Part shown: piece by piece, positions 45,341 to 57,983 of the stretch
How positions within the stretch are numbered: the first letter of the stretch is position 1
Layout of the letters: every line of letters starts with the position of its first letter
Assembly (NCBI GenBank): GCA_030604195.1
Contig: JAUVWI010000007.1
Coordinates: forward strand, 1-64,000
DNA length: 64,000 bases
Direction: 5' to 3'
DNA from: Spirochaetales bacterium
Lineage (GTDB): Bacteria; Spirochaetota; Spirochaetia; SZUA-6; DRHE01
Notes under the pieces: model-generated
The model's input: only the letters and a program-made list of their open reading frames with translations
Database searches by the model: none
Told to the model about the DNA's origin: nothing
Translations under genes and position numbers: made by a program

Positions 45341-45402
45341 GTCAGTAGGAAATGTTCCTAAGGACATGGCCTTCAGTTTTGCATTGTTCGAGGGTATTGA
45401 AG

Positions 45403-46689
45403 ATGGGAGAAAAGGACCGCAGGGGAAGTGTGCTCTTTGTTGATGACGAGAAGAGCATTCTTGCTTCGATAAAGCGCCTGTTCTTTAGAGAGCGGGAGAT
45501 TGAGGTCATAACCGCGGAGAGCGGTAAAGAGGGCCTTAAGCTCTTGGACGGTCAGGATATTGATCTAGTCGTGGCGGACCACCGGATGCCGCAAATGACC
45601 GGTGCTGAATTCTTGCGTCTGGTCAAGGAGCGAAACCCGGAGGTTTTGCGGATCATGCTCACCGGGTATGCAGATATTAAGACAATTACTAAGTCGGTGA
45701 ACGAGGGAGAGGTCTATCGATTCCTGACTAAACCCTGGAATGACGAGGACCTGAAGATTACGATTAAAAAAGCTCTTGAATACTGCAGGCTGGAGAAAGC
45801 TAATCGAGCCATGAGCGACCGAATAAGTGAGCAGAATAAGGAGCTCAAAGACCTCAACGCCGGCCTGGAGAAAAAGGTACGGCAGAGAACGGGGCAGTTG
45901 GAGAAGGCCGTTGGGCAATTGAAGCAGATGAGCGAGACTCAGAAAAGGAACTTTCAGAGTACGCTTATTCTGCTCACCCAGATCATGGGCTATACCAGCC
46001 GCTTCCTGGCGGGTCACTCAAAACGGGTTGCCGAGCTAGCCAAAACGGTAGCTACTAAAATGAAATGTGACCAGGATAAAAAGGAAATGATCTACTTTGC
46101 CGCTTTGCTTCATGATATCGGCCTGATCGGCGCTCCGGACACCCTGTTCAGTGAAGATATCGATCAATTTTCTAAGCAGGAGAGAAAGATCTTTTTCAGG
46201 CACACTCTTATTGGCGAAGAGATAATAGGAAATTTGCATAATTTAAAGAGACTTTCGGTGATAATCCGCTCTCACCATGAAGCATATCTTGGTGATGGGT
46301 TCCCGGACGGCCTGCAGAAAGATAAAATCCCTTTTGGCGCTCGCCTGATCAGGATAGTTAGCGACTATGACCGACTTCGCTTCCGCAAGGGTGTGAAGGA
46401 GGAACAGGCCCGCGCCCTTCTTAAAGAAGGCTCCGGTTATCTCTATGATCCACAGATCGTTAGGGTTTTATGTGATTTAACCGAATCGATCTCTGAGAAG
46501 CAAACCTTTACAAAAAGGGTTCTGATAAATGATCTACAGCCCGGAATGGTATTGAACGGGGACATAGAGCTTCAGAACGGGCTGCTCCTCTTACCGAGAG
46601 GAAGCGTTCTTGATGCATCGACAGTCAGGAGGATCTCCGCTTTTTCCTCGGCACTCGATGCGGGTACATCAATAGAGGTTTTCGTCTGA
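45403..46689 (+). CDS. Response regulator with HD-GYP-like output domain
   Basis: VLFVDDEKSILASIKRLFF…VVADHRMPQMTGAEFL…MLTGYAD…KPW; HSKRVAELAK…AALLHDIGLIG…RSHHEAYLGDGFPDGL. ATG 45403 preferred. Confidence 0.85.
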   Translation: MGEKDRRGSVLFVDDEKSILASIKRLFFREREIEVITAESGKEGLKLLDGQDIDLVVADHRMPQMTGAEFLRLVKERNPEVLRIMLTGYADIKTITKSVNEGEVYRFLTKPWNDEDLKITIKKALEYCRLEKANRAMSDRISEQNKELKDLNAGLEKKVRQRTGQLEKAVGQLKQMSETQKRNFQSTLILLTQIMGYTSRFLAGHSKRVAELAKTVATKMKCDQDKKEMIYFAALLHDIGLIGAPDTLFSEDIDQFSKQERKIFFRHTLIGEEIIGNLHNLKRLSVIIRSHHEAYLGDGFPDGLQKDKIPFGARLIRIVSDYDRLRFRKGVKEEQARALLKEGSGYLYDPQIVRVLCDLTESISEKQTFTKRVLINDLQPGMVLNGDIELQNGLLLLPRGSVLDASTVRRISAFSSALDAGTSIEVFV

Positions 46690-46738
46690 TCGAAGCGGAT
46701 CGTGACAACCGTCGAACAGGTTTGATTAGGAGGATATT

Positions 46739-47932
46739 ATGAAAATCGCCAGTGCTTGTTCTAAAAGCACCGATTCTATTGGCGCTGTAAACGGGGCGTT
46801 CGAGGCTCTGAAAAGTAAGCTGGAGCACGAACCTGATCTCCTTATCCTTTACTCCTCAGTGTTACACGATAATGAAAGGATAGTTAGTGAGCTGAGCCGG
46901 CTCGCACCACACAGCAAACTTCACGGCGCCACCTCATGCCTTGGTGTCATGACAGAAGAGGGATTCGTCAGCTCCGATGGCTACGGATTGGGAATACTTG
47001 GTATCACCGACCATGAAGGGGATTACGGAGTAGGCTCAGGCACGATCGGCTCTGATGCCGGACAGGCGGCAAAAGAAGCATTAAGCCGGGCCCTGGAAAA
47101 CGCAGGACTGTCCGGAGCTCTACCGGAATTGATCTGGATTAACAGCGCACCGGGGAAGGAAGAAGAAATCATTCTCGGTCTGGAGGAGGTCGTCGGTACC
47201 AATGTGCCGATTATCGGGGGCAGCTCGGCCGATAATACGATTGAGGGGAACTGGCTTCAGTTTGTCAACGGGAAGGTGGTCAGTGATAATATCGTCTTGA
47301 CGGTAATGTTCCCCTCGGTAAGAACAGCCCATGCTTTCCACAGCGGCTATAACCCGACAACGACCACGGGAACCGTTACCCGGGCGAAGGACCGGGTCGT
47401 CTTTTCCATTGATGGAAAACCAGCTGCAGAGGTTTATAACGATTGGACCAATGGGGTCATCTCCGGCGATCTGAAAGCCGCGGGCACCATCCTCGGTAAG
47501 ACCACCCTATTCCCCATTGGCCGTGTGGTCGGCGAGGTACAGGGGGTTCCCTATTTCAGACTCTCCCACCCAGAGACGGTCACCCCGGAGAGAGGCTTAA
47601 GTTTTTTCACGGAAATCGCCGAGGGTGACAAGATAGTGCTCATGGAAGGGAGTAAAGAAAGCCTCATCAACAGAGCGGGCCGGGTTGTCAAAACCGCCAT
47701 GGATTCGAGCTATTTCAAGATCGATGAGGTTAGTGGAGCTCTCATCATCTACTGCGCCGGCTGCATGCTCACGGTCCAGTCAGAAATGGATAAGGTTGTG
47801 GAAGGAATAAACGGAACCTTTCCGGGCAAACCCTTTTTAGGCGCATTCACCTTTGGTGAGCAGGGTTGTCTGATCGGCGGAGAAAATCATCACGGTAATC
47901 TCATGATTTCAACCCTGATCTTTGGCAGCTAA
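46739..47932 (+). CDS. FIST N/C-domain sensory protein
   Basis: DLLILYSSVLHDNERIVSELSRLAPHSKLHGATSCLGVMTEEG…PIIGGSSADNTIEGNWLQFVNGKVVSDNIVLTVMFP…GCMLTVQSEMDKVVEGINGTFPGKPFLGAFTFGEQG. Confidence 0.85.
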   Translation: MKIASACSKSTDSIGAVNGAFEALKSKLEHEPDLLILYSSVLHDNERIVSELSRLAPHSKLHGATSCLGVMTEEGFVSSDGYGLGILGITDHEGDYGVGSGTIGSDAGQAAKEALSRALENAGLSGALPELIWINSAPGKEEEIILGLEEVVGTNVPIIGGSSADNTIEGNWLQFVNGKVVSDNIVLTVMFPSVRTAHAFHSGYNPTTTTGTVTRAKDRVVFSIDGKPAAEVYNDWTNGVISGDLKAAGTILGKTTLFPIGRVVGEVQGVPYFRLSHPETVTPERGLSFFTEIAEGDKIVLMEGSKESLINRAGRVVKTAMDSSYFKIDEVSGALIIYCAGCMLTVQSEMDKVVEGINGTFPGKPFLGAFTFGEQGCLIGGENHHGNLMISTLIFGS

Positions 47933-47934
47933 TA

Positions 47935-49656
47935 ATGAAGAGCGAGGTTCAGATTGAGGAAGAGTTGCGCGAGGCTTTGCTCAATCTGGAGCGTTCCTGG
48001 GAAACCGAGAAGTTGCTCAAAGAGGAATACAGCGGGTTGGTGGAATGTCTTCATACTATGGCCGGCCAAAGCTCGGTCAACGCACTACTCAGGACAGTTG
48101 TCCGGCAGATTAAAGGAATCATCGGCTTTTCCGAGGCAGTGATCCTCCGCTGTGAGCAGCCGAAGCACTACCGGGGTTTTATTGCCACCAAAGAGGAACT
48201 GAAAAAGGTAATTATTCCCTGCACGGGTATCTTAAAGAAAGCCATAAAGGGCAGGCCTATCAGTCTGTACGACATCTCGCAGGCGGAAGAGTGGAGGGGG
48301 GTGGAAACGGTATCGATGCGTTTCTCTTCCGCTCTGTATATGCTAATTTTCGGCGGGCAATCCAAGCTCATCCTCGTCTGCCTGCACCGCGATCCCAATT
48401 TCTTTACCCAGGCGCACGGCAATTTCCTTAAGAATCTAGCCCCCAGCATCTCTCAAGCATTAACAAACCTGATCACCAAGCAACGGCTGGTCGAGTCGGA
48501 GAGAGAATATCGAATCCTTATCGATGGGGCCAAGGAGGGAATCGCTATTATCGCCGGAACAAAATTTCTCTATATCAACTCCAGTATTACCAGGATAACC
48601 GGCTTTTCCCAGCAGGATTTAAAGGGAAAGGATGTTTTTCAGCTTTTCGGACCGGAAGAAGGGAAGCGACTTCAAGAGATATTTACAAAAGAGACCCGGA
48701 GTAAAGAGAACGAGGTGTTCGAAACCAGGGTCAAAAATACACAGGGGCAACAGAAGTTTATTGAGTTTACTTTGGCCAGTATCAAGTATAAAGGAGCACC
48801 GGCCAATCTGCTGTTCCTCCGGGACATTACGGAAAAAAAGGAACTGCAGCTGCAGCTTATACAATCGCAAAAATTGGAATCTATCGGCCAGCTGGCGGCC
48901 GGAATAGCTCATGAGATCAACAATCCGGTAGGCTTTGTGGCCAGCAATTGTTACACTCTTAGAAGTTATTTGAAAAACATCAAGGAGATAATCAACCTCT
49001 ATAGATCGAGCAAGGATGACCGACTCATTAAGGAGAAGGAGAAGGAGTATGATCTGGATTATATCCTTGAAGATATTGAGTCGCTTTCGGAAGAAAATGC
49101 TAAGGGTTTGGAACGAATAACCACCATCGTTCAGAGCTTGAAAGACTTTGCCCATATCGAGGCGGAAGACTCCTTTAACTTCACCGATATTAATAAAGCT
49201 ATTGAGGGCACGCTGCTCATTGCCAGGAATGAGTTCAAATACAGCGCCGAAATCAGTATGGAGCTGGGTGATATTCCGGAGATTTACTGTAACATCAGTC
49301 AGATGAATCAGGTCTTCCTGAACCTGATCGTAAATGCCGCTCAGGCGATTAAGAGCCAAAACCGCCGGGATATGGGCAGGATTTTTATTCGTACATACGG
49401 TGATGACAGCAACGTGTACTGTGATATTTCCGACGACGGTCCCGGCATCCAGCCTGAGAATTTGTCAAAAATTTTTGATCCCTTCTTTACCACCAAAGAC
49501 GTAGGCGTGGGGACCGGCCTGGGCTTGAATATCTCTTACGATATTGTAGTAAACAAGCATGGGGGGGATATCCAGGTCAGGAGCGAGCCTGATAAGGGAG
49601 CGTCATTTATCTTGAAGTTACCCATACGAAAGGAAATGTTTTCTCAGGATGCCTAA
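47935..49656 (+). CDS. PAS-domain sensor histidine kinase
   Basis: PAS region [42 protein letters not shown]-box [25 protein letters not shown]1 and G2 boxes ([40 protein letters not shown]). Confidence 0.93.
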
Positions 49657-50827
49657 AGCAATACTATTTGTTGACGATGATCGAGAAATACTTAACGCAC
49701 TGAAGCGCAACTTTTTCCGATCTGGATTTAAGATCCACCTGGCCGAGGGCGCGGAAGCCGGGCTCGAAATCCTTTCCAGGGAACCAGTCGACCTGGTCGT
49801 TTCAGATATGCGGATGCCCGGTATGAACGGCTACGATTTCCTGAAGGCTGTCTGTAAAGGATATCCGGATGTGCTGAGGGTGATCCTCAGCGGGTACACC
49901 GACAAAGATACGATCCTGAAATCGGTTATGGACGGAACCGCCTGCGCCTATATCACCAAGCCGTGGGATAACGAAGCTTTAGAGGCCTACCTGCGGCATC
50001 TCATCGAGATGCACGACGCAGCCCACAGCAAGCGGGTGTTAGAGAAGATAAGCAAGATCAGGGATGTTCCGGTCCTTCCAACAGTCTACTATAAGCTGAC
50101 CAGACTTATCCAGGAGGACAGGGAGCTCGATGAAATCAGGGAGACGATCGAAGAAGATCCCGGTTATACAGCCAAGATCCTGAATATAGCCAACGCCGCC
50201 TTCTTTGGCGGTAAAATAGGTTCCCTGAAACAGGCACTGATGATGATGGGCAGGGTGAATTTGATGAACCTCATCCTGTCTAGCTCAGTCTTCTCTATTT
50301 TCAAGGACGCCGGCTGTAAGACCCTGAACGTGGAGACGATCTGGAAACATTCCAATTTGACAAACAAGCTGCTCCAGCGTTTCTACTTTTTAACAAAACG
50401 TAAGAAAATACCGGATGAGCAGGCCACCGTGGGTTTGCTCCATGATATCGGTTATCTGTTTCTGATGAAGTACTATCCGGCTGAGATGCACAGGCTTGCA
50501 AAACTTAAGCAGGAGCCCGGAAATATACCGGTGACGGAGCGGGAGAAGGAGCTGATCGGGGTCTCTCATAGCGAGATCGGGGCTTACCTCCTGGATTACT
50601 GGAATTTGCCTGGCTATTTCAGCGAGGTTTGTCTGTATCACCACGAACCTTTTAATAAAAACGTACTGCATAAAGATATGGTCTACCTGGCCTATATCGC
50701 GGACGTTTATTCCTGGAAAGCTCTGGGAAAGATGAGAAACGAAACGTTGGACGGGCGGATCCCGGCAGCACTAAACCTCGACCCGGAGAGTTTAGAGAAG
50801 GTTGTTTCGCGGATAGAAAGTAAATAA
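49649..50827 (+). CDS. Response regulator with HDOD output domain
   Basis: ILFVDDDREILNALKRNFF…VVSDMRMPGMNGYDFL…KPW; VPVLPTVYYKLTRLIQED…DPGYTAKILNIANAAFFG…GLLHDIGYLFLMKYYP. Confidence 0.9.
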   Translation: MPKAILFVDDDREILNALKRNFFRSGFKIHLAEGAEAGLEILSREPVDLVVSDMRMPGMNGYDFLKAVCKGYPDVLRVILSGYTDKDTILKSVMDGTACAYITKPWDNEALEAYLRHLIEMHDAAHSKRVLEKISKIRDVPVLPTVYYKLTRLIQEDRELDEIRETIEEDPGYTAKILNIANAAFFGGKIGSLKQALMMMGRVNLMNLILSSSVFSIFKDAGCKTLNVETIWKHSNLTNKLLQRFYFLTKRKKIPDEQATVGLLHDIGYLFLMKYYPAEMHRLAKLKQEPGNIPVTEREKELIGVSHSEIGAYLLDYWNLPGYFSEVCLYHHEPFNKNVLHKDMVYLAYIADVYSWKALGKMRNETLDGRIPAALNLDPESLEKVVSRIESK

Positions 50828-50834
50828 CCGTACC

Positions 50835-51740
50835 ATGAACCACCCCAAATCACCAGCTAACTCCGCCGTCTGTTTCTTTGTTTCCGATCTTCACGGCCAT
50901 CGATCTAAATACGAAAAACTCTTTTCTGCTGTGGCCAATGAAAAGCCTACCGCTATATTCCTTGGCGGGGACCTGCTCCCTGCGGGTGGTGGCAGGGGAG
51001 GTGGCAGTGGTGGCCGGACAGTCGCAGATCACAGCAATTTCATAACTACCTTCCTGTTCCCTGAATTTTCAAGATTAAAGGAATATCTAGGGAAGTTTTA
51101 CCCGGAGGTTTTCCTGATCCTGGGCAATGATGATGTGCGAACACAGGAAGCACCAATCCTGGATGCAGCAACAAAAGGGGTGTGGCATTACCTGCACAAC
51201 CGCAAAGCAACCTGGCGGGATTTCCTGATCTTCGGCTACGCCTATGTTCCCCCTACGCCTTTCCGCTTAAAAGATTGGGAGCGCTACGATGTTTCACGCT
51301 ACGTGGATCCGGGGTGCATAGCCCCTGAACACGGCATTATCTCCCTGCCTGTTGCGGAAGATCAACTGAAATACGCCACAATCGCCCAGGATCTGGAAAA
51401 ATTATGCGGAAGCAGCGAGATGACCAATGCAATCCTTCTTTTCCATACTCCTCCCTATAAAACCAATCTCGACCACGTGGCTCTTGATGGCAAGATGATA
51501 GATCACGTTCCCCTGGATTTCCATATAGGAAGTATAGCGGTGAGAAGGTTTATTGAAGAACGCGGACCCTTAATTACTCTTCACGGCCATGCCCATGAAT
51601 CTGCCCGCCTTACCGGCAACTGGCAGGATAAAATCGGGCGCACCCGGGCTTTTTCAGCAGCCCATGACGGGCCGGAACTGGCCCTTGTTCGTTTTGACCC
51701 CTGCAATCCGGAAAACGCAGAGAGGGAGTTGATCAGATAG
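50835..51740 (+). CDS. Metallophosphoesterase
   Basis: FVSDLHGHRSKYEKLF…AIFLGGDLLP…LILGNDD…LHGHAHES. Confidence 0.88.
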   Translation: MNHPKSPANSAVCFFVSDLHGHRSKYEKLFSAVANEKPTAIFLGGDLLPAGGGRGGGSGGRTVADHSNFITTFLFPEFSRLKEYLGKFYPEVFLILGNDDVRTQEAPILDAATKGVWHYLHNRKATWRDFLIFGYAYVPPTPFRLKDWERYDVSRYVDPGCIAPEHGIISLPVAEDQLKYATIAQDLEKLCGSSEMTNAILLFHTPPYKTNLDHVALDGKMIDHVPLDFHIGSIAVRRFIEERGPLITLHGHAHESARLTGNWQDKIGRTRAFSAAHDGPELALVRFDPCNPENAERELIR

Positions 51741-54700
51741 CGCTCTTTAAGGGCAGAGGCCTGGCAGCGTCAGTTACCGCCCCGATCTTAACTGCATAGC
51801 TTGTTTTATTAGCTACATCTTCATCGGTAATAATATGTACATCCAACAGACCACTGGTTCTGTATCCTGTACGCAGATAATTCATTTCAGCTAAAGAAAG
51901 GCTCCAGCCCTCCAGCCAGAGGCAGAGATCTTTTTTCTGCTCTTCCGTGCCATGAAAGTGAACCAGAACATCTATATCACTGGCTGCACCGGCTGTGGCA
52001 TTCTTGGTGCTGCCCAGCAGATAAAAACCTCTTACTCCAAAACGGCGGCTATCCAGCTGGGAAGCGATAAGCTCCGCCATATGCAACCGCCAGCGCCAGT
52101 AGCTATTCCCGTGAGCTGTCGTGATTTCCTCTATTTCACCAGGCTCAATTGATATTTCCATATCCAGGCTGGAATCTGAAAGAAAACCCACTCCTTCTTC
52201 GAGATCACCATTCATCAGGATCTGCAGGGTAAATCCTTTAGAGGATTTATTCACATCAATTACCCTGATGGTATCGCTCAATTCTGAATATTCAGGCAGT
52301 AGATCGACCAGGATGTTATCCGCGCCCAGCAGAAACCTTGAATTGAATATTATACCATCTTCATCCGGATAAAGGGGCAGATAACGAATTGAGGCTTCCA
52401 CCAGGTCCTGAAAGAAGTGAGTGCCGAAAGAGAGCTCAGGGGTATAATTCCCCTTCTTACAGGCAATCTCTATTAGCATAGCTGTATTATTGATATCTGC
52501 ATAGGTTACATTAACTCCCATCTTGATATCACCCCGGCTGCCCCAGCGTCCCGGACCCATTAGAATAAACTGGCGCTTGGGCAGGATCTTATTGAGCATG
52601 CCCACGGCCCTGCCAACGTTCTTAAGATCCTCCAGGCTCCGCAGCCTGCTGTAAGCATTACAATCAATAAAAACAATATGAGTGATATTGGGCACAATCC
52701 CATTGGTCACAAACTTCCTTGCAGAAAAGACTATTTTTTCTTCAGGCAGATCTTTGGGCATGGGCGGAGCAGAGACATCCTTTGAATAGCTCTGCGGCCG
52801 GCACTGTAAAAGGTAAAGACTCTCACCGTTATGGGCAAATTCAATATCCACGGCTGTTCCCATTTTATCCTCGAGCAGCTTAAGTAGGGCACCGATCTGC
52901 TCGACAAAGGGAGTGCGGTTGATAATGCCGTGAAAAGTGACTACCAGATCATCACTGCTGAAATTAATGTTGAATTTGGAAGTGGGATTCTCGATATGGC
53001 CTTCAATATAGGTGGATAACATATGCTGGATCCCCGGTATTTCAGTTCCGAACTCTTTTAATAATTCGGTAATCTCAATGGTCTCAAATGAATTATTCTC
53101 CAGGTTAATCACATCGATCCTCTTGGCCGAATAACGCATCACTTCACCGGGAGAAACGTTTACCCTTAAGTTCGGCATACCAGGAGCAATTAACACCGGA
53201 TAATCATCGGTTACACGGTCAACCGCCCGTGTTCCCAGACCGGGCACCATGCGGATCAGACCATCCTCTTTCTTTATCCGGGGTGACCAGAAAAAATCAT
53301 TCCTGCTGAAGGCGACTCCGGCAAAAGCAGGGAAGAAATATCTGCCGACTTTAGTTCCCACTACCTCCTGGATCATAATCCCCATTTCTTCATTGAAATC
53401 AATCAACCCCCGGGCTGTCCGGTATTCAATAGGGTCAGGCGCAAAGGTTGAGGCATATACCTCGGCAACAGCATCGAGCAGGGCATTCAGCCGCTCCTCC
53501 TTGCTGCCCTGGTTGGCTAAAAAGAGGCTCTTGTATTTGCCGGAGAAAACAGCGCCGAATCTATCTTCTAAGAGACTCGAGCTGCGCACAATAATGGGAT
53601 GATCGCCGAAGTCCTCAATTGCCGTGGAAAGCCCTTTGATAACTTCAGGGAGAAAATTGGAATTCTTAAAGATCTGCACAATATTCAAATAGCTTAGATA
53701 TATCTCGTCAAGGCTCTTATATTTCTGCTCATTGATCTCTTCCAAGTTATTATAGTGCAGGAAATTGATCAGCCCGTCAGATGTCAGATACCAGGTCTTG
53801 GGAACCTTGAGATTCTTAAAGAGCTCTCTATATTCAGGAGATTTTGCCGCAATATGGGCGGCAAGAAATAAACCGGCGCTTTTTCCCCCCAGTTGGCCCT
53901 GGCTCTCGGCAGTAAAGACCATTTTCTGGCTCAAATCATAAAAATCACCCACCTCAATGAATTTTTTTGCGATATTTATGAACTCCAATTGATCGGCAAA
54001 AAATCTGCGGATAAGGGAGACGCGCATACCCTTTTCTATAGGATCAGAGAGCATTGCACCCTCCGCCTCGATATAATGGTAGCGGGTAAGAGCATCAATT
54101 ATATCGTTAAGCGTTGAGTTGGAGTTATCAATGACTTTAACTAAGAATCGCGACTTATCCTCCTGGACCCACTTCTGGATATTGGCGAGTATCTGCTCTT
54201 CATTCAATGATTTGGCAGCAACCCGGAATACTTCATGGCTGAGAGAGATGATCCTGTCGATTGTTTGTTTCTGGACCGGCCGGTTGACATCATCATCATC
54301 ACCGCGGCCGGTTGTTTTCCGGCTGAAACCGAATTTTTCAAGCAGCTTTTTTGCCTCCTTAATGCCATTCCAGCAGAGGTGGTAAAGCATTTTCTGTGAG
54401 ACATAGAGGAAAAGCTTCCTGTCCGACCGATCCAGCATATCGATGACCGCCCTTAATTCACTGCCTTTTTTTTCCGAAAGCTCCTCTTTTATTTCCTTCC
54501 ACTCTTTGAATACCTCTCTTAAGCTCTTCTGCAGTATGGTATGGCCTATTCGATCAGCGATGGTATCGATTAACTTTCGCTCCTCTTTAAGAAAGAAACC
54601 ACTATCGGTTGCGGGCGCCTCTTCAGAGTAGGAAACCGTTATCCTGCCCATAACCTTTTCCTGGGCAGCAATGTCCGCACTCAGAATCCAGGATGTCTCC

Positions 54701-54939
54701 CGGAAACCTGTGGAGCTGTATATCTGATCTTGATACTCTATCTTCACCTGGCAGATCTCCGGAAACTGCCAGCCCGCGGGAATGATCTCGATTACACCGG
54801 CAAACAATTCAGACAACTCGGCATCAGCATTGTTTAAGAGTTCTTCGATCTTATACAAACAGTTAAGCTCTTTTGCCCTTTCCTGCAAATCAGTAATCAG
54901 ATTATCAGCCCTTCTACCCGGCTTACCAGGATCTTTCAT
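51733..54939 (-). CDS. GAF-like sensor / PEP synthase-PPDK N-terminal (ATP-grasp) / nucleotidyltransferase fusion protein
   Basis: N-term LQERAKELNCLYKIEELL…AGWQFPEIC…FLKEERKLIDTIADRIG (GAF-like); GQLGGKSAGLFLA, HPIIVRSSSLLEDRFGAVFSGKYKSLFL, GVAFSRN (PPDK_N-like); C-term GFYLLGSTKNATAGAASDIDVLVHFHG (NT). Confidence 0.8.
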   Translation of the reverse strand: MKDPGKPGRRADNLITDLQERAKELNCLYKIEELLNNADAELSELFAGVIEIIPAGWQFPEICQVKIEYQDQIYSSTGFRETSWILSADIAAQEKVMGRITVSYSEEAPATDSGFFLKEERKLIDTIADRIGHTILQKSLREVFKEWKEIKEELSEKKGSELRAVIDMLDRSDRKLFLYVSQKMLYHLCWNGIKEAKKLLEKFGFSRKTTGRGDDDDVNRPVQKQTIDRIISLSHEVFRVAAKSLNEEQILANIQKWVQEDKSRFLVKVIDNSNSTLNDIIDALTRYHYIEAEGAMLSDPIEKGMRVSLIRRFFADQLEFINIAKKFIEVGDFYDLSQKMVFTAESQGQLGGKSAGLFLAAHIAAKSPEYRELFKNLKVPKTWYLTSDGLINFLHYNNLEEINEQKYKSLDEIYLSYLNIVQIFKNSNFLPEVIKGLSTAIEDFGDHPIIVRSSSLLEDRFGAVFSGKYKSLFLANQGSKEERLNALLDAVAEVYASTFAPDPIEYRTARGLIDFNEEMGIMIQEVVGTKVGRYFFPAFAGVAFSRNDFFWSPRIKKEDGLIRMVPGLGTRAVDRVTDDYPVLIAPGMPNLRVNVSPGEVMRYSAKRIDVINLENNSFETIEITELLKEFGTEIPGIQHMLSTYIEGHIENPTSKFNINFSSDDLVVTFHGIINRTPFVEQIGALLKLLEDKMGTAVDIEFAHNGESLYLLQCRPQSYSKDVSAPPMPKDLPEEKIVFSARKFVTNGIVPNITHIVFIDCNAYSRLRSLEDLKNVGRAVGMLNKILPKRQFILMGPGRWGSRGDIKMGVNVTYADINNTAMLIEIACKKGNYTPELSFGTHFFQDLVEASIRYLPLYPDEDGIIFNSRFLLGADNILVDLLPEYSELSDTIRVIDVNKSSKGFTLQILMNGDLEEGVGFLSDSSLDMEISIEPGEIEEITTAHGNSYWRWRLHMAELIASQLDSRRFGVRGFYLLGSTKNATAGAASDIDVLVHFHGTEEQKKDLCLWLEGWSLSLAEMNYLRTGYRTSGLLDVHIITDEDVANKTSYAVKIGAVTDAARPLPLKSAI

Positions 54940-56687
54940 TTGAAAATCACCCCCATTCCTCTTTTCCCATCGACCTTCACCTTGAGCGGCAATTTAAGGT
55001 GTACATGTTTCAGGAACTCACCTTCAGCTGCGACCTGCCGGCTGTCCAGCCACTCCCAATCGATCTGGTATTCATCAGAGTATTCCAGGGAAAAGTAATA
55101 TATACCCAGGTTGGATATATTATGGAAAAAATGAGCTCCCTGGCTGAGATCAATGGCCATTTCCGGCAGGGTACATTCCACAATTGCTTTGGCGCCGCAA
55201 ATCTGGGACCAATCAACCGGTATTCCCAACCAGTCATCTGAGCTCCCCCATCTGCCGAAACCGATAAGCAGGTAGGGCCGCCCCTCTTCTATTAGCTGCC
55301 GGTTTAAAGCCTCTACCTCTGCGGCCATTGCCCGGGAATATTTTATGTCAAAACTATCCGGTTTCAAATAAACAACATCCTCTATTGTAGCCAATGTCCC
55401 ATTGCCCAGCACTCTCTCTGAGGCAACCAGCACTGTGTTGTTTTTCAGCTCTTCCTTCTCAATATTAACAGACTCTTCAGATATTTTCAGGGGCCTTACC
55501 TGTAAAAAACCAAAACGGGCCGGTCTGCCGGAGCGCGGATCAAAGGTCATGGCAAACTCAATTTCCACTTTATGGCCGTAGCTCTTTTCACTCAGATCAA
55601 GCAGTATTAACAGCAGCTCATTCAAAGGCAGTATCTCTGCCTGCAGTATGGGTGCAAAGGTAATAATCCGCGGTCCTTTGCCGGCTGTTCCAATGTTTAC
55701 CCGGTCCGATTGTATATCATAGGTTGAGGCTATATACGGTAAGACCTCATCATATTCAGCATCCGTAAGATCCAGGTTCAGCAGGTATTCAGCTTCATTA
55801 ATCGGATCATAGGGCGGCGGTTTGCCCGTATTCACCGCCCAGAAATTTTTCTGGGTGGATTTTAAAAGATCACCTGTTGATTTATAAGGCGGATTCAGAC
55901 GGGGAAAGCGGGGAGAATAAAACCAGACCAAACCCCCATCCACAATTTTCTTACCCAATCCTAATGCCAGATTAACTACCCCGTCTTCCGGTTTGGCATA
56001 GCTTAAAGGATAAAAGTTATAGGAACGGGCCACACCGGATATATTGGGATAAAAGCGCCGGCCATGAGCCAGGCCCACGATTTCCTGGATGATAACCGCC
56101 ATTTTTTCCTGCTCAATACTATGGCCGGCAGCTTTCATATAATCCCGGGCACTCTTGAAAAAGGTGGAGGCATAAACAAATTTGACTGCCTCCACAAATC
56201 TGCGAAACCTGGTATCAGTATCGCACTGGTTATTGGGGATCATCTTGGTCCCATATACCCCGGCAAAGGGGGAGCTGGCCGCATCTTCCAGCAGGCTGGA
56301 AGATCTGATTGCCAATGGTACCCGCACCCGGGCAATCAACGCCCTTAAGTCACCGATCATCTCCGCCGGAAGATCCGCCTTTTGAAAATGGCAGGCAATA
56401 TGATCATCGCTTAAGTCTGAGGCAACAATTTCATATAGATCATTCTGCTCCATGAAGCGATCAAAGAAATGAGTGGTGATTACCGTCATGGTAGGGATAT
56501 TGATTATGATATCATGAAAGCGGTTTTCCTGGAACTGAGCTGCAAGGGTATCCCTGATCAAGGCCAATCCTTGAGCTTTACCTCCCAGACTGCCGGCACC
56601 TATGCGGGTAAAGCCCTCCCAGCCGTTAATAAAATTACGGTTAAAAGGCGGTATTTCCTTTGCTAATCCGTAGTCCGCCATGGACAC
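54936..56687 (-). CDS. PEP synthase/PPDK N-terminal domain protein (stand-alone)
   Basis: RIGAGSLGGKAQGLALIRDTLA, VPLAIRSSSLLEDAASSPFAGVYGTKMI, GFGRWGSSDDWLGIPV…SQGAHFFHNISNLGIYYFSL; ATGA overlap with 51733..54939. Confidence 0.82.
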   Translation of the reverse strand: MSMADYGLAKEIPPFNRNFINGWEGFTRIGAGSLGGKAQGLALIRDTLAAQFQENRFHDIIINIPTMTVITTHFFDRFMEQNDLYEIVASDLSDDHIACHFQKADLPAEMIGDLRALIARVRVPLAIRSSSLLEDAASSPFAGVYGTKMIPNNQCDTDTRFRRFVEAVKFVYASTFFKSARDYMKAAGHSIEQEKMAVIIQEIVGLAHGRRFYPNISGVARSYNFYPLSYAKPEDGVVNLALGLGKKIVDGGLVWFYSPRFPRLNPPYKSTGDLLKSTQKNFWAVNTGKPPPYDPINEAEYLLNLDLTDAEYDEVLPYIASTYDIQSDRVNIGTAGKGPRIITFAPILQAEILPLNELLLILLDLSEKSYGHKVEIEFAMTFDPRSGRPARFGFLQVRPLKISEESVNIEKEELKNNTVLVASERVLGNGTLATIEDVVYLKPDSFDIKYSRAMAAEVEALNRQLIEEGRPYLLIGFGRWGSSDDWLGIPVDWSQICGAKAIVECTLPEMAIDLSQGAHFFHNISNLGIYYFSLEYSDEYQIDWEWLDSRQVAAEGEFLKHVHLKLPLKVKVDGKRGMGVIFK

Positions 56688-56696
56688 TTACTAAAG

Positions 56697-57983
56697 TTAC
56701 ACCCAGCCGCGATTTTTACTGGCCCTGGCCACCCGGTCAATTGCAATTACATACGCGGCATCACGCATATATAGTTTATTTTTTTTAGCCATCTCACTGG
56801 TAGCCATGAAAGCAGCTGTCATCTTGGTGTCCAGCTTGCCTAAAACCTCATCCTTTTCCCAATAGTAGTTCATGTTGCTCTGAACCTGTTCAAAATAACT
56901 GCAGGTAACACCCCCGGCATTAGCCAGGAAGTCGGGAATAAGGAAAATACCCTTCTCCTTGATAACTTCATCAGCCTCAATGGTAGTGGGCCCGTTAGCC
57001 CCTTCAGCAATAAGCTTGACCCTTTTGTTGATCGTATTCACACTCTCTGCGTTAATCTCGTTTTCTAAAGCCGCCGGGATCAGGATATCCACCTCCTGCT
57101 CAAGCCAGGCCCCCCCGGGGAGCGCTTCATAGCCCAGTTCTTTTGCCTTCTCCTGGTTAATACTACCGAAGCTGTCCGTAATGGGCAAGAGCTCCCCCAG
57201 ATCGATCCCGTCCGCTTTTTTATAGGTAAATGACTTTTGCTTTTCCTGGTCCCAGCAGGATACACACAATACTTTACCCCCTATCCGGATAAATAACTCT
57301 ACGGCATGTTGCGCCACATTACCGAAACCCTGAACCGCGGCCACGGTTCCCTCCGGCTTTATACCCATTTCTTTCAAAGCTTCCCTGACGGTGAATATCA
57401 ATCCATAACCCGTAGCTTCCGTCCTGCCCAACGAACCTCCCATGTCCACCGGTTTGCCGGTGATAAAGCCGGGATACCTGGCGCCATGTATAGTTTCATA
57501 CTCATCGAGCATCCAGAGCATATGTTGAGCATTGGTCATTACATCGGGAGCCGGTACATCGGAAAGTGGTCCCACATTCCTGGCCAGTTGTCTTACCCAG
57601 CCGCGGCAGAGGAGTTCCTGCTCCCGCAAGCTTAAATTATGGGGATCACAGATTACACCGCCCTTTCCTCCGCCCAGAGGAATATCAACTACCGCGCATT
57701 TCCAGGTCATCCACATGGCCAGGGCACGCACCGTATCGATTGTCTCCTGGGGATGAAAACGAATACCTCCCTTTCCCGGTCCCCTGGCATCATTATGCAG
57801 AACCCGAAAACCCCGGAATATCTTCTTCCCGCCGTCATCCATATGTACCGGAATACTGAAGTGGTACTCCCGCAGACTGTTCCTCAACAAATCACTGGTT
57901 GCCTGATCCAGCTCAAGCATCTCGGCCACCTTGTCAAACTGATCCTGGGCTGTTTTGTAGGGATTGTAATCTTTAGCTGCCAT
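56697..57983 (-). CDS. gdhA: Glu/Leu/Phe/Val dehydrogenase (glutamate dehydrogenase)
   Basis: GFRVLHNDARGPGKGGIRFHPQETIDTVRALAMWMTWKCAVVDIPLGGGKGGV…PAPDVMTNAQHMLWMLDEY…AVQGFGNVAQHAVEL. Confidence 0.95.
   Translation of the reverse strand: MAAKDYNPYKTAQDQFDKVAEMLELDQATSDLLRNSLREYHFSIPVHMDDGGKKIFRGFRVLHNDARGPGKGGIRFHPQETIDTVRALAMWMTWKCAVVDIPLGGGKGGVICDPHNLSLREQELLCRGWVRQLARNVGPLSDVPAPDVMTNAQHMLWMLDEYETIHGARYPGFITGKPVDMGGSLGRTEATGYGLIFTVREALKEMGIKPEGTVAAVQGFGNVAQHAVELFIRIGGKVLCVSCWDQEKQKSFTYKKADGIDLGELLPITDSFGSINQEKAKELGYEALPGGAWLEQEVDILIPAALENEINAESVNTINKRVKLIAEGANGPTTIEADEVIKEKGIFLIPDFLANAGGVTCSYFEQVQSNMNYYWEKDEVLGKLDTKMTAAFMATSEMAKKNKLYMRDAAYVIAIDRVARASKNRGWV

What the first reader, a model, noticed from the sequence alone, without database searches (positions are those of the whole stretch)
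51733..54939. GAF-like sensor / PPDK-N ATP-grasp / nucleotidyltransferase fusion with no PEP-utilising His domain
Seen: the protein has a GAF-like N-terminus, PPDK_N-type motifs (GGKSAGL, VRSSSLLED…FSGKY) and a C-terminal NT signature GS-x11-SDIDVLV. I find no TSHAAI-type phosphohistidine domain or PEP-binding barrel. Established: PEP synthase and PPDK need the His swivel domain to make PEP. Inference: this is not a metabolic PEP synthase but possibly a sensor-controlled phospho- or nucleotidyl-transfer enzyme modifying a target (perhaps its neighbour).
Basis: partly seen in the sequence, partly recalled or inferred. Interest (0 to 1): 0.68.

Follow-up and report, generated by a model that had tools for sequence, protein, structure and literature searches.

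The report
Likely regulator of glutamate dehydrogenase
A large, uncharacterised bacterial protein that joins a sensor, an ATP-using kinase-like domain and a nucleotide-transferring domain sits, together with a smaller relative, beside the gene for glutamate dehydrogenase in at least a dozen bacterial phyla, which suggests a widespread, undescribed switch that controls how cells make or burn glutamate.

Summary
The 1068-aa ORF (P1) has a GAF fold, a PPDK_N ATP-grasp domain with intact active-site motifs, and a C-terminal MNT-type nucleotidyltransferase (NT) whose catalytic residues are invariant in 63 relatives. No PEP-utilisers His domain is detectable in P1 or encoded nearby. The NT motif is GS-x9-SDID, not x11.

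(1) Between PPDK_N and NT lies an undescribed domain (GPGRWG...SxGTHFF, invariant His841), shared with the co-transcribed paralogue P2 (54936-56687) and absent from Pfam. (2) P1 is not a one-off: full-length orthologues occur in at least a dozen phyla. (3) The gene before P2 is glutamate dehydrogenase (GDH), and GDH-P2-P1, often followed by a convergent metallophosphoesterase, is conserved across those phyla. Other subtypes of this PPDK_N family also tend to sit beside GDH: 56 of 83 members within 4 kb, against 0 of 12 canonical PPDKs.

Best explanation: a sensor-controlled P1/P2 pair that regulates GDH, probably by covalent nucleotidyl or phosphoryl transfer. The GDH link is well supported; the chemistry and target are inferred. 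I found no publication on it.

The parts
51733..54939 (-). P1: GAF - helical - PPDK_N - RWG/HFF domain - nucleotidyltransferase, 1068 aa
   Evidence: ORF and translation; full-length orthologues; AF2 model pLDDT 81.8
54469..54888 (-). P1 residues 18-157: GAF-fold sensor domain
   Evidence: Foldseek matches to GAF structures (6oei/3K2N, 4g3k, 8jrc NifA GAF, 3cit), probability 0.99-1.00; same domain in histidine kinases beside GDH
53929..54459 (-). P1 residues 161-337: all-helical linker region, no known family
   Evidence: AF2 secondary structure; no Pfam hit above cut-off
52741..53895 (-). P1 residues 349-733: PPDK_N ATP-grasp domain; G351-G352-K353, R452, E700 and Q712 invariant in 24 diverse family members
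   Evidence: PF01326 E=1e-57; Foldseek to rifampin phosphotransferase E=4.6e-14; conservation
52165..52737 (-). P1 residues 735-925: undescribed domain; G797 R798 G800 G808 E824 S837 G839 H841 F842 invariant in 76 family members
   Evidence: no Pfam match; homologous to the P2 C-terminal domain (hhalign probability 99.3, E=2.7e-20)
51769..52101 (-). P1 residues 947-1057: MNT-type nucleotidyltransferase; G976 S977 S987 D988 D990 D1033 invariant in 63 orthologues
   Evidence: PF01909, Foldseek 2rff/MNT, conservation
54936..56687 (-). P2: PPDK_N + RWG/HFF domain, 583 aa, GTG start, overlaps P1 by 4 bp
   Evidence: AF2 model pLDDT 87.5; P2 directly upstream of P1 in 42 of 61 cross-phylum loci with enough flank
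55452..56591 (-). P2 residues 33-412: PPDK_N domain
   Evidence: PF01326 E=1.9e-37; Foldseek RPH E=6.2e-13
54939..55433 (-). P2 residues 419-583: RWG/HFF domain with invariant H519
56697..57983 (-). Glutamate (Glu/Leu/Phe/Val-family) dehydrogenase, 428 aa, directly upstream of P2 in the GDH-P2-P1 run
   Evidence: PF00208 E=5.8e-70; GDH upstream on the same strand in 30 of 39 cross-phylum loci with at least 4.5 kb upstream sequence, 34 of 39 on either strand
50835..51740 (+). Convergent calcineurin-like metallophosphoesterase (3' ends overlap P1 by 8 bp); candidate partner, possibly the reverse activity
   Evidence: PF00149 E=1.6e-9; found within 1.5 kb downstream of P1 in 41 of 66 loci, 37 of them convergent

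Best explanation
P1 and P2 form a sensor-controlled regulatory pair for glutamate dehydrogenase. The GAF domain of P1 senses a metabolite (2-oxoglutarate or glutamate would be the first candidates); this gates ATP use by the PPDK_N + RWG/HFF catalytic cores of P1 and P2 and/or the NT domain of P1. The output is a covalent mark (nucleotidyl or phosphoryl) on GDH, or on P2 which then acts on GDH, tuning GDH activity to nitrogen/energy status; the neighbouring metallophosphoesterase may remove the mark. Shown: domain make-up, intact ATP-grasp and NT active-site motifs, co-directional overlapping genes, cross-phylum linkage of the PPDK_N-RWG/HFF family with GDH. Inferred: the regulatory role, the sensed ligand, the chemistry, the target, the role of the phosphoesterase.
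For: Gene order GDH-P2-P1 in at least a dozen phyla, P2/P1 overlapping by a few bases in most pairs. In genomes of the window's phylum, 56 of 83 family members of all subtypes lie within 4 kb of GDH (roughly 0.5% expected for 1-2 GDH genes in ~4 Mb); control: 0 of 12 canonical PPDKs. All 8 genomes with a GDH at least 70% identical to the window's carry P1, and 8 of 9 P1s lie beside it (the ninth is on a contig that ends there). The own genome has a second GDH next to a REC-REC-PPDK_N relative (L166). Parabacteroides: gdhA beside the REC-type relative and 3 of 3 same-contig Bacteroidia cases adjacent. Swappable sensory N-termini (GAF, two REC). The same GAF occurs in histidine kinases beside GDH in related genomes and fused to a P2-like protein beside GDH. 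NT catalytic residues invariant.
Against: No biochemical data. Gene adjacency shows functional association, not direction or chemistry. 16 of 44 members of the 870-aa type and several others are not near GDH (many on short contigs). GDH occurs without the family in many genomes (e.g. about 40 sampled Bacteroidia), so it is an accessory. No acceptor site on GDH could be identified (only lists clade-specific residues). The metallophosphoesterase link is weaker (41 of 66).
Confidence: 0.5

Rival explanations
1. P1/P2 are metabolic enzymes of glutamate/2-oxoglutarate metabolism: the PPDK_N and RWG/HFF domains together phosphorylate or ligate a small molecule linked to the GDH reaction (as rifampin phosphotransferase or phenylphosphate-synthase-type enzymes do), and GAF/REC/NT parts only regulate them.
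For: PPDK_N relatives with small-molecule substrates are the closest structures (RPH E=4.6e-14, HpeI 5e-10); the RWG/HFF domain has enzyme-like invariant residues incl. His841, E824, R798; all subtypes tend to sit with GDH.
Against: No substrate-binding barrel or other large domain; P2 is only PPDK_N + RWG/HFF; several subtypes carry signalling domains; GDH works without them in many genomes.
Confidence: 0.22
2. The RWG/HFF domain is a highly diverged His swivel domain: His841/His519 accepts the beta-phosphate of ATP from PPDK_N and passes it to the target, so the 'missing' phosphohistidine domain is present in cryptic form. (This is compatible with either of the first two readings.)
For: AF2 secondary structure of P2 472-534 is strand-helix-strand-helix-strand with the invariant His at the first turn of the second helix, the order seen in swivel domains (own knowledge; RPH swivel is a beta/beta/alpha sandwich with catalytic His825, PMC4844700); the His is invariant in 76 of 76 members; the domain directly follows PPDK_N.
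Against: Profile-profile comparison with 23 PEP-utilisers domains gives probability below 1%; no PF00391 match at E<=1; Foldseek reported no match attributable to this domain; conserved GRWG and E824 have no counterpart known to me.
Confidence: 0.25
3. The NT domain acts on P2 or P1 itself, or on a nucleic acid/antitoxin-like partner (MNT-like), and the link with GDH is only shared expression under nitrogen or energy control.
For: Closest NT structures are MNT antitoxins and relatives; weak PADLOC matches of the NT to small candidate-defence NTs.
Against: No HEPN partner gene was recognised nearby; linkage is with GDH across phyla, also for family members without an NT; no other gene family recurs around P1 in 80 loci.
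Confidence: 0.15

Closest known systems
Rifampin phosphotransferase (RPH) / PEP synthase / PPDK
   Same: PPDK_N ATP-grasp domain, intact motifs (GGK, R452-SSS, D/E-x-E-F, LQxR)
   Different: no detectable His swivel domain, no PEP barrel, no rifampin-binding domain; adds RWG/HFF, GAF and NT domains; different gene context
[quoted passage not shown] REC-REC 990-aa relatives here)
   Same: PPDK_N + RWG/HFF core (in the relatives examined here), sensory N-terminus, beside GDH
   Different: REC-REC instead of GAF + helical region; no NT domain; function unpublished as far as I found
MNT/MntA-type minimal nucleotidyltransferases
   Same: GS-x9-SDxD plus third Asp, NT fold (2rff, HEPN-MNT)
   Different: fused to GAF-PPDK_N; no HEPN toxin partner recognised
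GlnE/GlnD regulation of nitrogen assimilation (own knowledge)
   Same: signal-gated nucleotidyltransferase acting on a central nitrogen enzyme or its regulator (proposed analogy only)
   Different: no homology tested or claimed beyond the NT superfamily; different domains; GDH rather than glutamine synthetase/PII
HpeI of Rhodococcus rhodochrous GD02 (PDB 9goj)
   Same: PPDK_N-type ATP-grasp in a short polypeptide (Foldseek E=5.3e-10)
   Different: 330-residue chain; no RWG/HFF, GAF or NT domains

Membership tests
PEP synthase / PPDK | PPDK_N ATP-grasp domain | tested here: met
   PF01326 E=1e-57 (P1), 1.9e-37 (P2); Foldseek
PEP synthase / PPDK | PEP-utilisers phosphohistidine swivel domain (PF00391) | tested here: not met
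   no match at E<=1 in the whole-genome search; hhalign probability below 1%. A cryptic structural version is not excluded
PEP synthase / PPDK | C-terminal PEP/pyruvate-binding barrel | tested here: not met
   no Pfam match; C-terminus is an NT domain
Rifampin phosphotransferase | rifampin-binding domain and C-terminal His swivel | tested here: not met
   NCBIfam RPH models 26 bits or less against cut-offs of 999 or more; no swivel
Nucleotidyltransferase superfamily (NTP_transf_2 / MNT) | GS...DxD and third Asp in an NT fold | tested here: met
Type VII HEPN-MNT toxin-antitoxin | adjacent HEPN toxin | tested here: not met
   neighbours are GDH, P2 and metallophosphoesterase; MntA model 16.6 bits against cut-off 60
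GAF sensor proteins | GAF fold | tested here: met
   Foldseek probability up to 1.00 to several GAF structures; no Pfam GAF hit
GDH-linked PPDK_N-RWG/HFF family (defined here) | PPDK_N followed by G-R-W-G ... E ... S-x-G-x-H-F-F, near GDH | tested here: met
Protein-modifying nucleotidyltransferase/kinase of GDH | transfer of a nucleotidyl or phosphoryl group to GDH or P2 | not testable with these tools
   needs biochemistry

The most novel reading that the evidence does not exclude
A previously undescribed, widespread class of post-translational control of glutamate dehydrogenase: sensor-gated PPDK_N proteins with a new His-containing catalytic domain, of which one branch carries a nucleotidyltransferase, reversibly modify GDH (or a P2 relay) in response to a metabolite, acting as a GDH counterpart of the GlnD/GlnE control of glutamine synthetase.
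Probability: 0.3. Interest if true: 0.85.

Novelty: new variant of a known kind. Interest (0 to 1): 0.63.

Why it matters
GDH stands where carbon and nitrogen metabolism meet, and in most bacteria no dedicated regulator of its activity is described (own knowledge). A conserved GDH-P2-P1 module in at least a dozen phyla, and a wider family that also reaches gut Bacteroidia, makes a specific, testable candidate. It also defines a conserved enzyme-like domain (RWG/HFF) with no Pfam match, standing where the His swivel of PPDK-type enzymes would be expected, in proteins that are currently annotated only as 'PEP/pyruvate-binding domain-containing protein'.

Tried and rejected
Metabolic PEP synthase/PPDK: rejected (no swivel or barrel; separate PPDK on C64). 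HEPN-MNT toxin-antitoxin or defence system: weak NT-only PADLOC matches, no HEPN gene recognised. A His-swivel protein supplied by a neighbouring gene: own-genome PF00391 hits lie on contigs C64, C31, C50 (and a weak one on C115), none on C8. Cryptic swivel by sequence profile: negative; by fold: not separable, as Foldseek runs on whole models only and coordinates are not exposed. Plasmid/phage carriage: no plasmid or phage record covers 80% of P1. Acceptor site on GDH by clade-specific residues: only 58 against 7 sequences, giving H63, H115, H154, E163, W244, C361; not interpretable as modification sites. Alignment of P1/P2 PPDK_N with canonical PPDK by MAFFT was poor outside the main motifs and was not used for fine residue mapping. 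Literature searches found no description; one query was rejected for its wording; a B. fragilis fitness paper had no relevant passage. The library misses most subscription papers.
Full report
OBSERVATION. The ORF at 51733-54939 (-) is a genuine 1068-aa gene (P1). Pfam finds PPDK_N at residues 349-733 (E=1e-57) and NTP_transf_2 at 965-1005, exactly at its cut-off. Of 15 full-length orthologues scanned, 15 match NTP_transf_2, best E=3.6e-8. In 63 aligned orthologues the NT residues G976, S977, S987, D988, D990 and D1033 are invariant. The motif is GS-x9-SDID, not GS-x11 as written. An AlphaFold2 model made with those 63 sequences (pLDDT 81.8), compared with the PDB, gives rifampin phosphotransferase ATP-grasp (E=4.6e-14), several GAF domains (probability up to 1.00) and MNT-type nucleotidyltransferases (2rff probability 1.00; HEPN-MNT 0.99). 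So the three named domains are there.

NO KNOWN HIS DOMAIN, BUT AN OVERLOOKED DOMAIN. PF00391 does not match P1 or P2 even at E<=1; own-genome matches lie on other contigs. Profile-profile comparison against 23 PEP-utilisers domains is negative (probability below 1%). However, residues 735-925 form a conserved domain that no Pfam model matches, shared with the C-terminal part of P2 (hhalign probability 99.3, E=2.7e-20). Across 76 members of all subtypes G797, R798, G800, G808, E824, S837, G839, H841 and F842 are invariant. The predicted secondary structure around the invariant His (strand-helix-strand-helix beginning at the His-strand; P2 residues 472-534) resembles the order in a swivel domain, but I could not test the fold of this domain alone, so a cryptic phosphohistidine domain is possible and unproven.

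PARTNER AND OPERON. P2 (54936-56687, 583 aa) is PPDK_N plus the same RWG/HFF domain and overlaps P1 by 4 bp. Nine bases before the start of P2 ends the 428-aa glutamate dehydrogenase gene (56697-57983). Downstream of P1, convergent and overlapping by 8 bp, is a calcineurin-like metallophosphoesterase.

CONSERVATION OF THE GENE ORDER. The best 80 match P1 over nearly its whole length at 52-61% identity and come from genomes labelled Acidobacteriota, Aminicenantes, Zixibacteria, Spirochaetes, Ignavibacteria/Melioribacter, Bacteroidota, Krumholzibacteria, Calditrichota, Neomarinimicrobiota, Phycisphaerae, Kiritimatiellae/Verrucomicrobia, Gemmatimonadetes, Cloacimonadota, Fermentibacteria, Muiribacteriota and others (nearly all metagenome-assembled, so single labels may be wrong). 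With enough flank, P2 is directly upstream in 42 of 61, GDH on the same strand within 4.5 kb in 30 of 39 (34 of 39 on either strand), and the metallophosphoesterase within 1.5 kb downstream in 41 of 66. No other gene family recurs comparably. P1-linked GDHs are about 70-80% identical to the window's GDH.

THE WHOLE FAMILY TRACKS GDH. Related proteins with other N-termini (about 990 aa with two REC domains; about 870 aa with a RecA/KaiC-like N-terminus judged by eye only; about 777 aa) share PPDK_N-RWG/HFF but lack the NT. In about 100 searched genomes of the window's phylum, 56 of 83 family members lie within 4 kb of a GDH gene (P1 8/9, 777-type 3/3, 870-type 28/44, 990-type 17/27). With one or two GDH genes per ~4 Mb the chance expectation is around half a percent. 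Canonical PPDKs in the same genomes: 0 of 12. Members not near GDH are often on short contigs, so 67% is probably a lower bound. The own genome has a second pair, GDH + REC-REC-PPDK_N, on contig C137 (L166 8448-12861). In Parabacteroides distasonis gdhA is divergent from the REC-type relative, and in a sample of 119 Bacteroidia genomes the three cases resolvable on one contig are adjacent, while about 40 GDH-bearing genomes have no family member: the system is an accessory of GDH, not a requirement.

A SHARED SENSOR. P1-type GAF domains also occur in histidine kinases next to response regulators and GDH in related genomes (L199, L200, L201, L202) and, in L206, fused to a P2-like protein beside GDH. 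That the same sensor recurs near GDH with different outputs supports a signal related to GDH metabolism; the ligand is unknown. Foldseek includes the NifA GAF domain among the matches, which makes 2-oxoglutarate worth testing, no more.

MECHANISM. Shown: architecture, intact active-site motifs in both PPDK_N domains and the NT, gene order, cross-phylum linkage. Established background: in RPH, PEPS and PPDK the ATP-grasp domain phosphorylates a His on a swivel domain, which carries phosphate to the acceptor (PMC4844700); MNT, GlnE and GlnD type enzymes put nucleotides on proteins (own knowledge). Inferred: P1/P2 sense a metabolite and modify GDH (or P2 relays it), with the phosphoesterase as a possible reverse activity. 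I give the GDH-regulator reading 0.5, and NT- or PPDK_N-driven covalent modification of GDH itself about 0.3.

LITERATURE. Searches for the architecture, for PF01326 with GDH, and for GDH with PEP/pyruvate-binding proteins gave nothing relevant. [quoted passage not shown] The library lacks most subscription papers, so absence is not proof.

VERDICT. Real, conserved and uncharacterised as far as I can find. New variant of a known kind; interest 0.63, higher if covalent control of GDH were shown.

Noticed in passing
L166 8448-12861 (own genome, contig C137): A second GDH (451 aa) directly followed by a 990-aa REC-REC-PPDK_N-RWG/HFF protein: the same genome holds two GDH-linked systems of different type.
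   Followed up: yes
L199, L200, L201, L203: Another GDH type (about 40% identical) sits downstream of a histidine kinase with P1-type GAF and a response regulator; between them a small Cys-rich protein (e.g. GLCATCRFASTCIYP...) recurs.
   Followed up: partly
window 45352-50827 (+): Dense signalling cluster: receiver-type protein, FIST-domain protein, GAF-PAS histidine kinase, REC-HDOD protein, next to the metallophosphoesterase.
   Followed up: no
L207 (NZ_OY725790.1): A 278-kb Parabacteroides distasonis 'plasmid' carries two gdhA genes, ruvC and rapZ; it looks like chromosomal DNA recorded as a plasmid.
   Followed up: no
MT835811.1 and MT835667.1 (phage collection): Two unannotated 'Bacteriophage sp.' records from faecal samples encode PPDK_N relatives of P1 (27-28% identity over half of it); probably bacterial DNA in virome contigs.
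   Followed up: no
L206 4881-9449: 1522-aa fusion of several P1-type GAF domains with a P2-like protein, beside a short response-regulator-like gene and GDH.
   Followed up: partly
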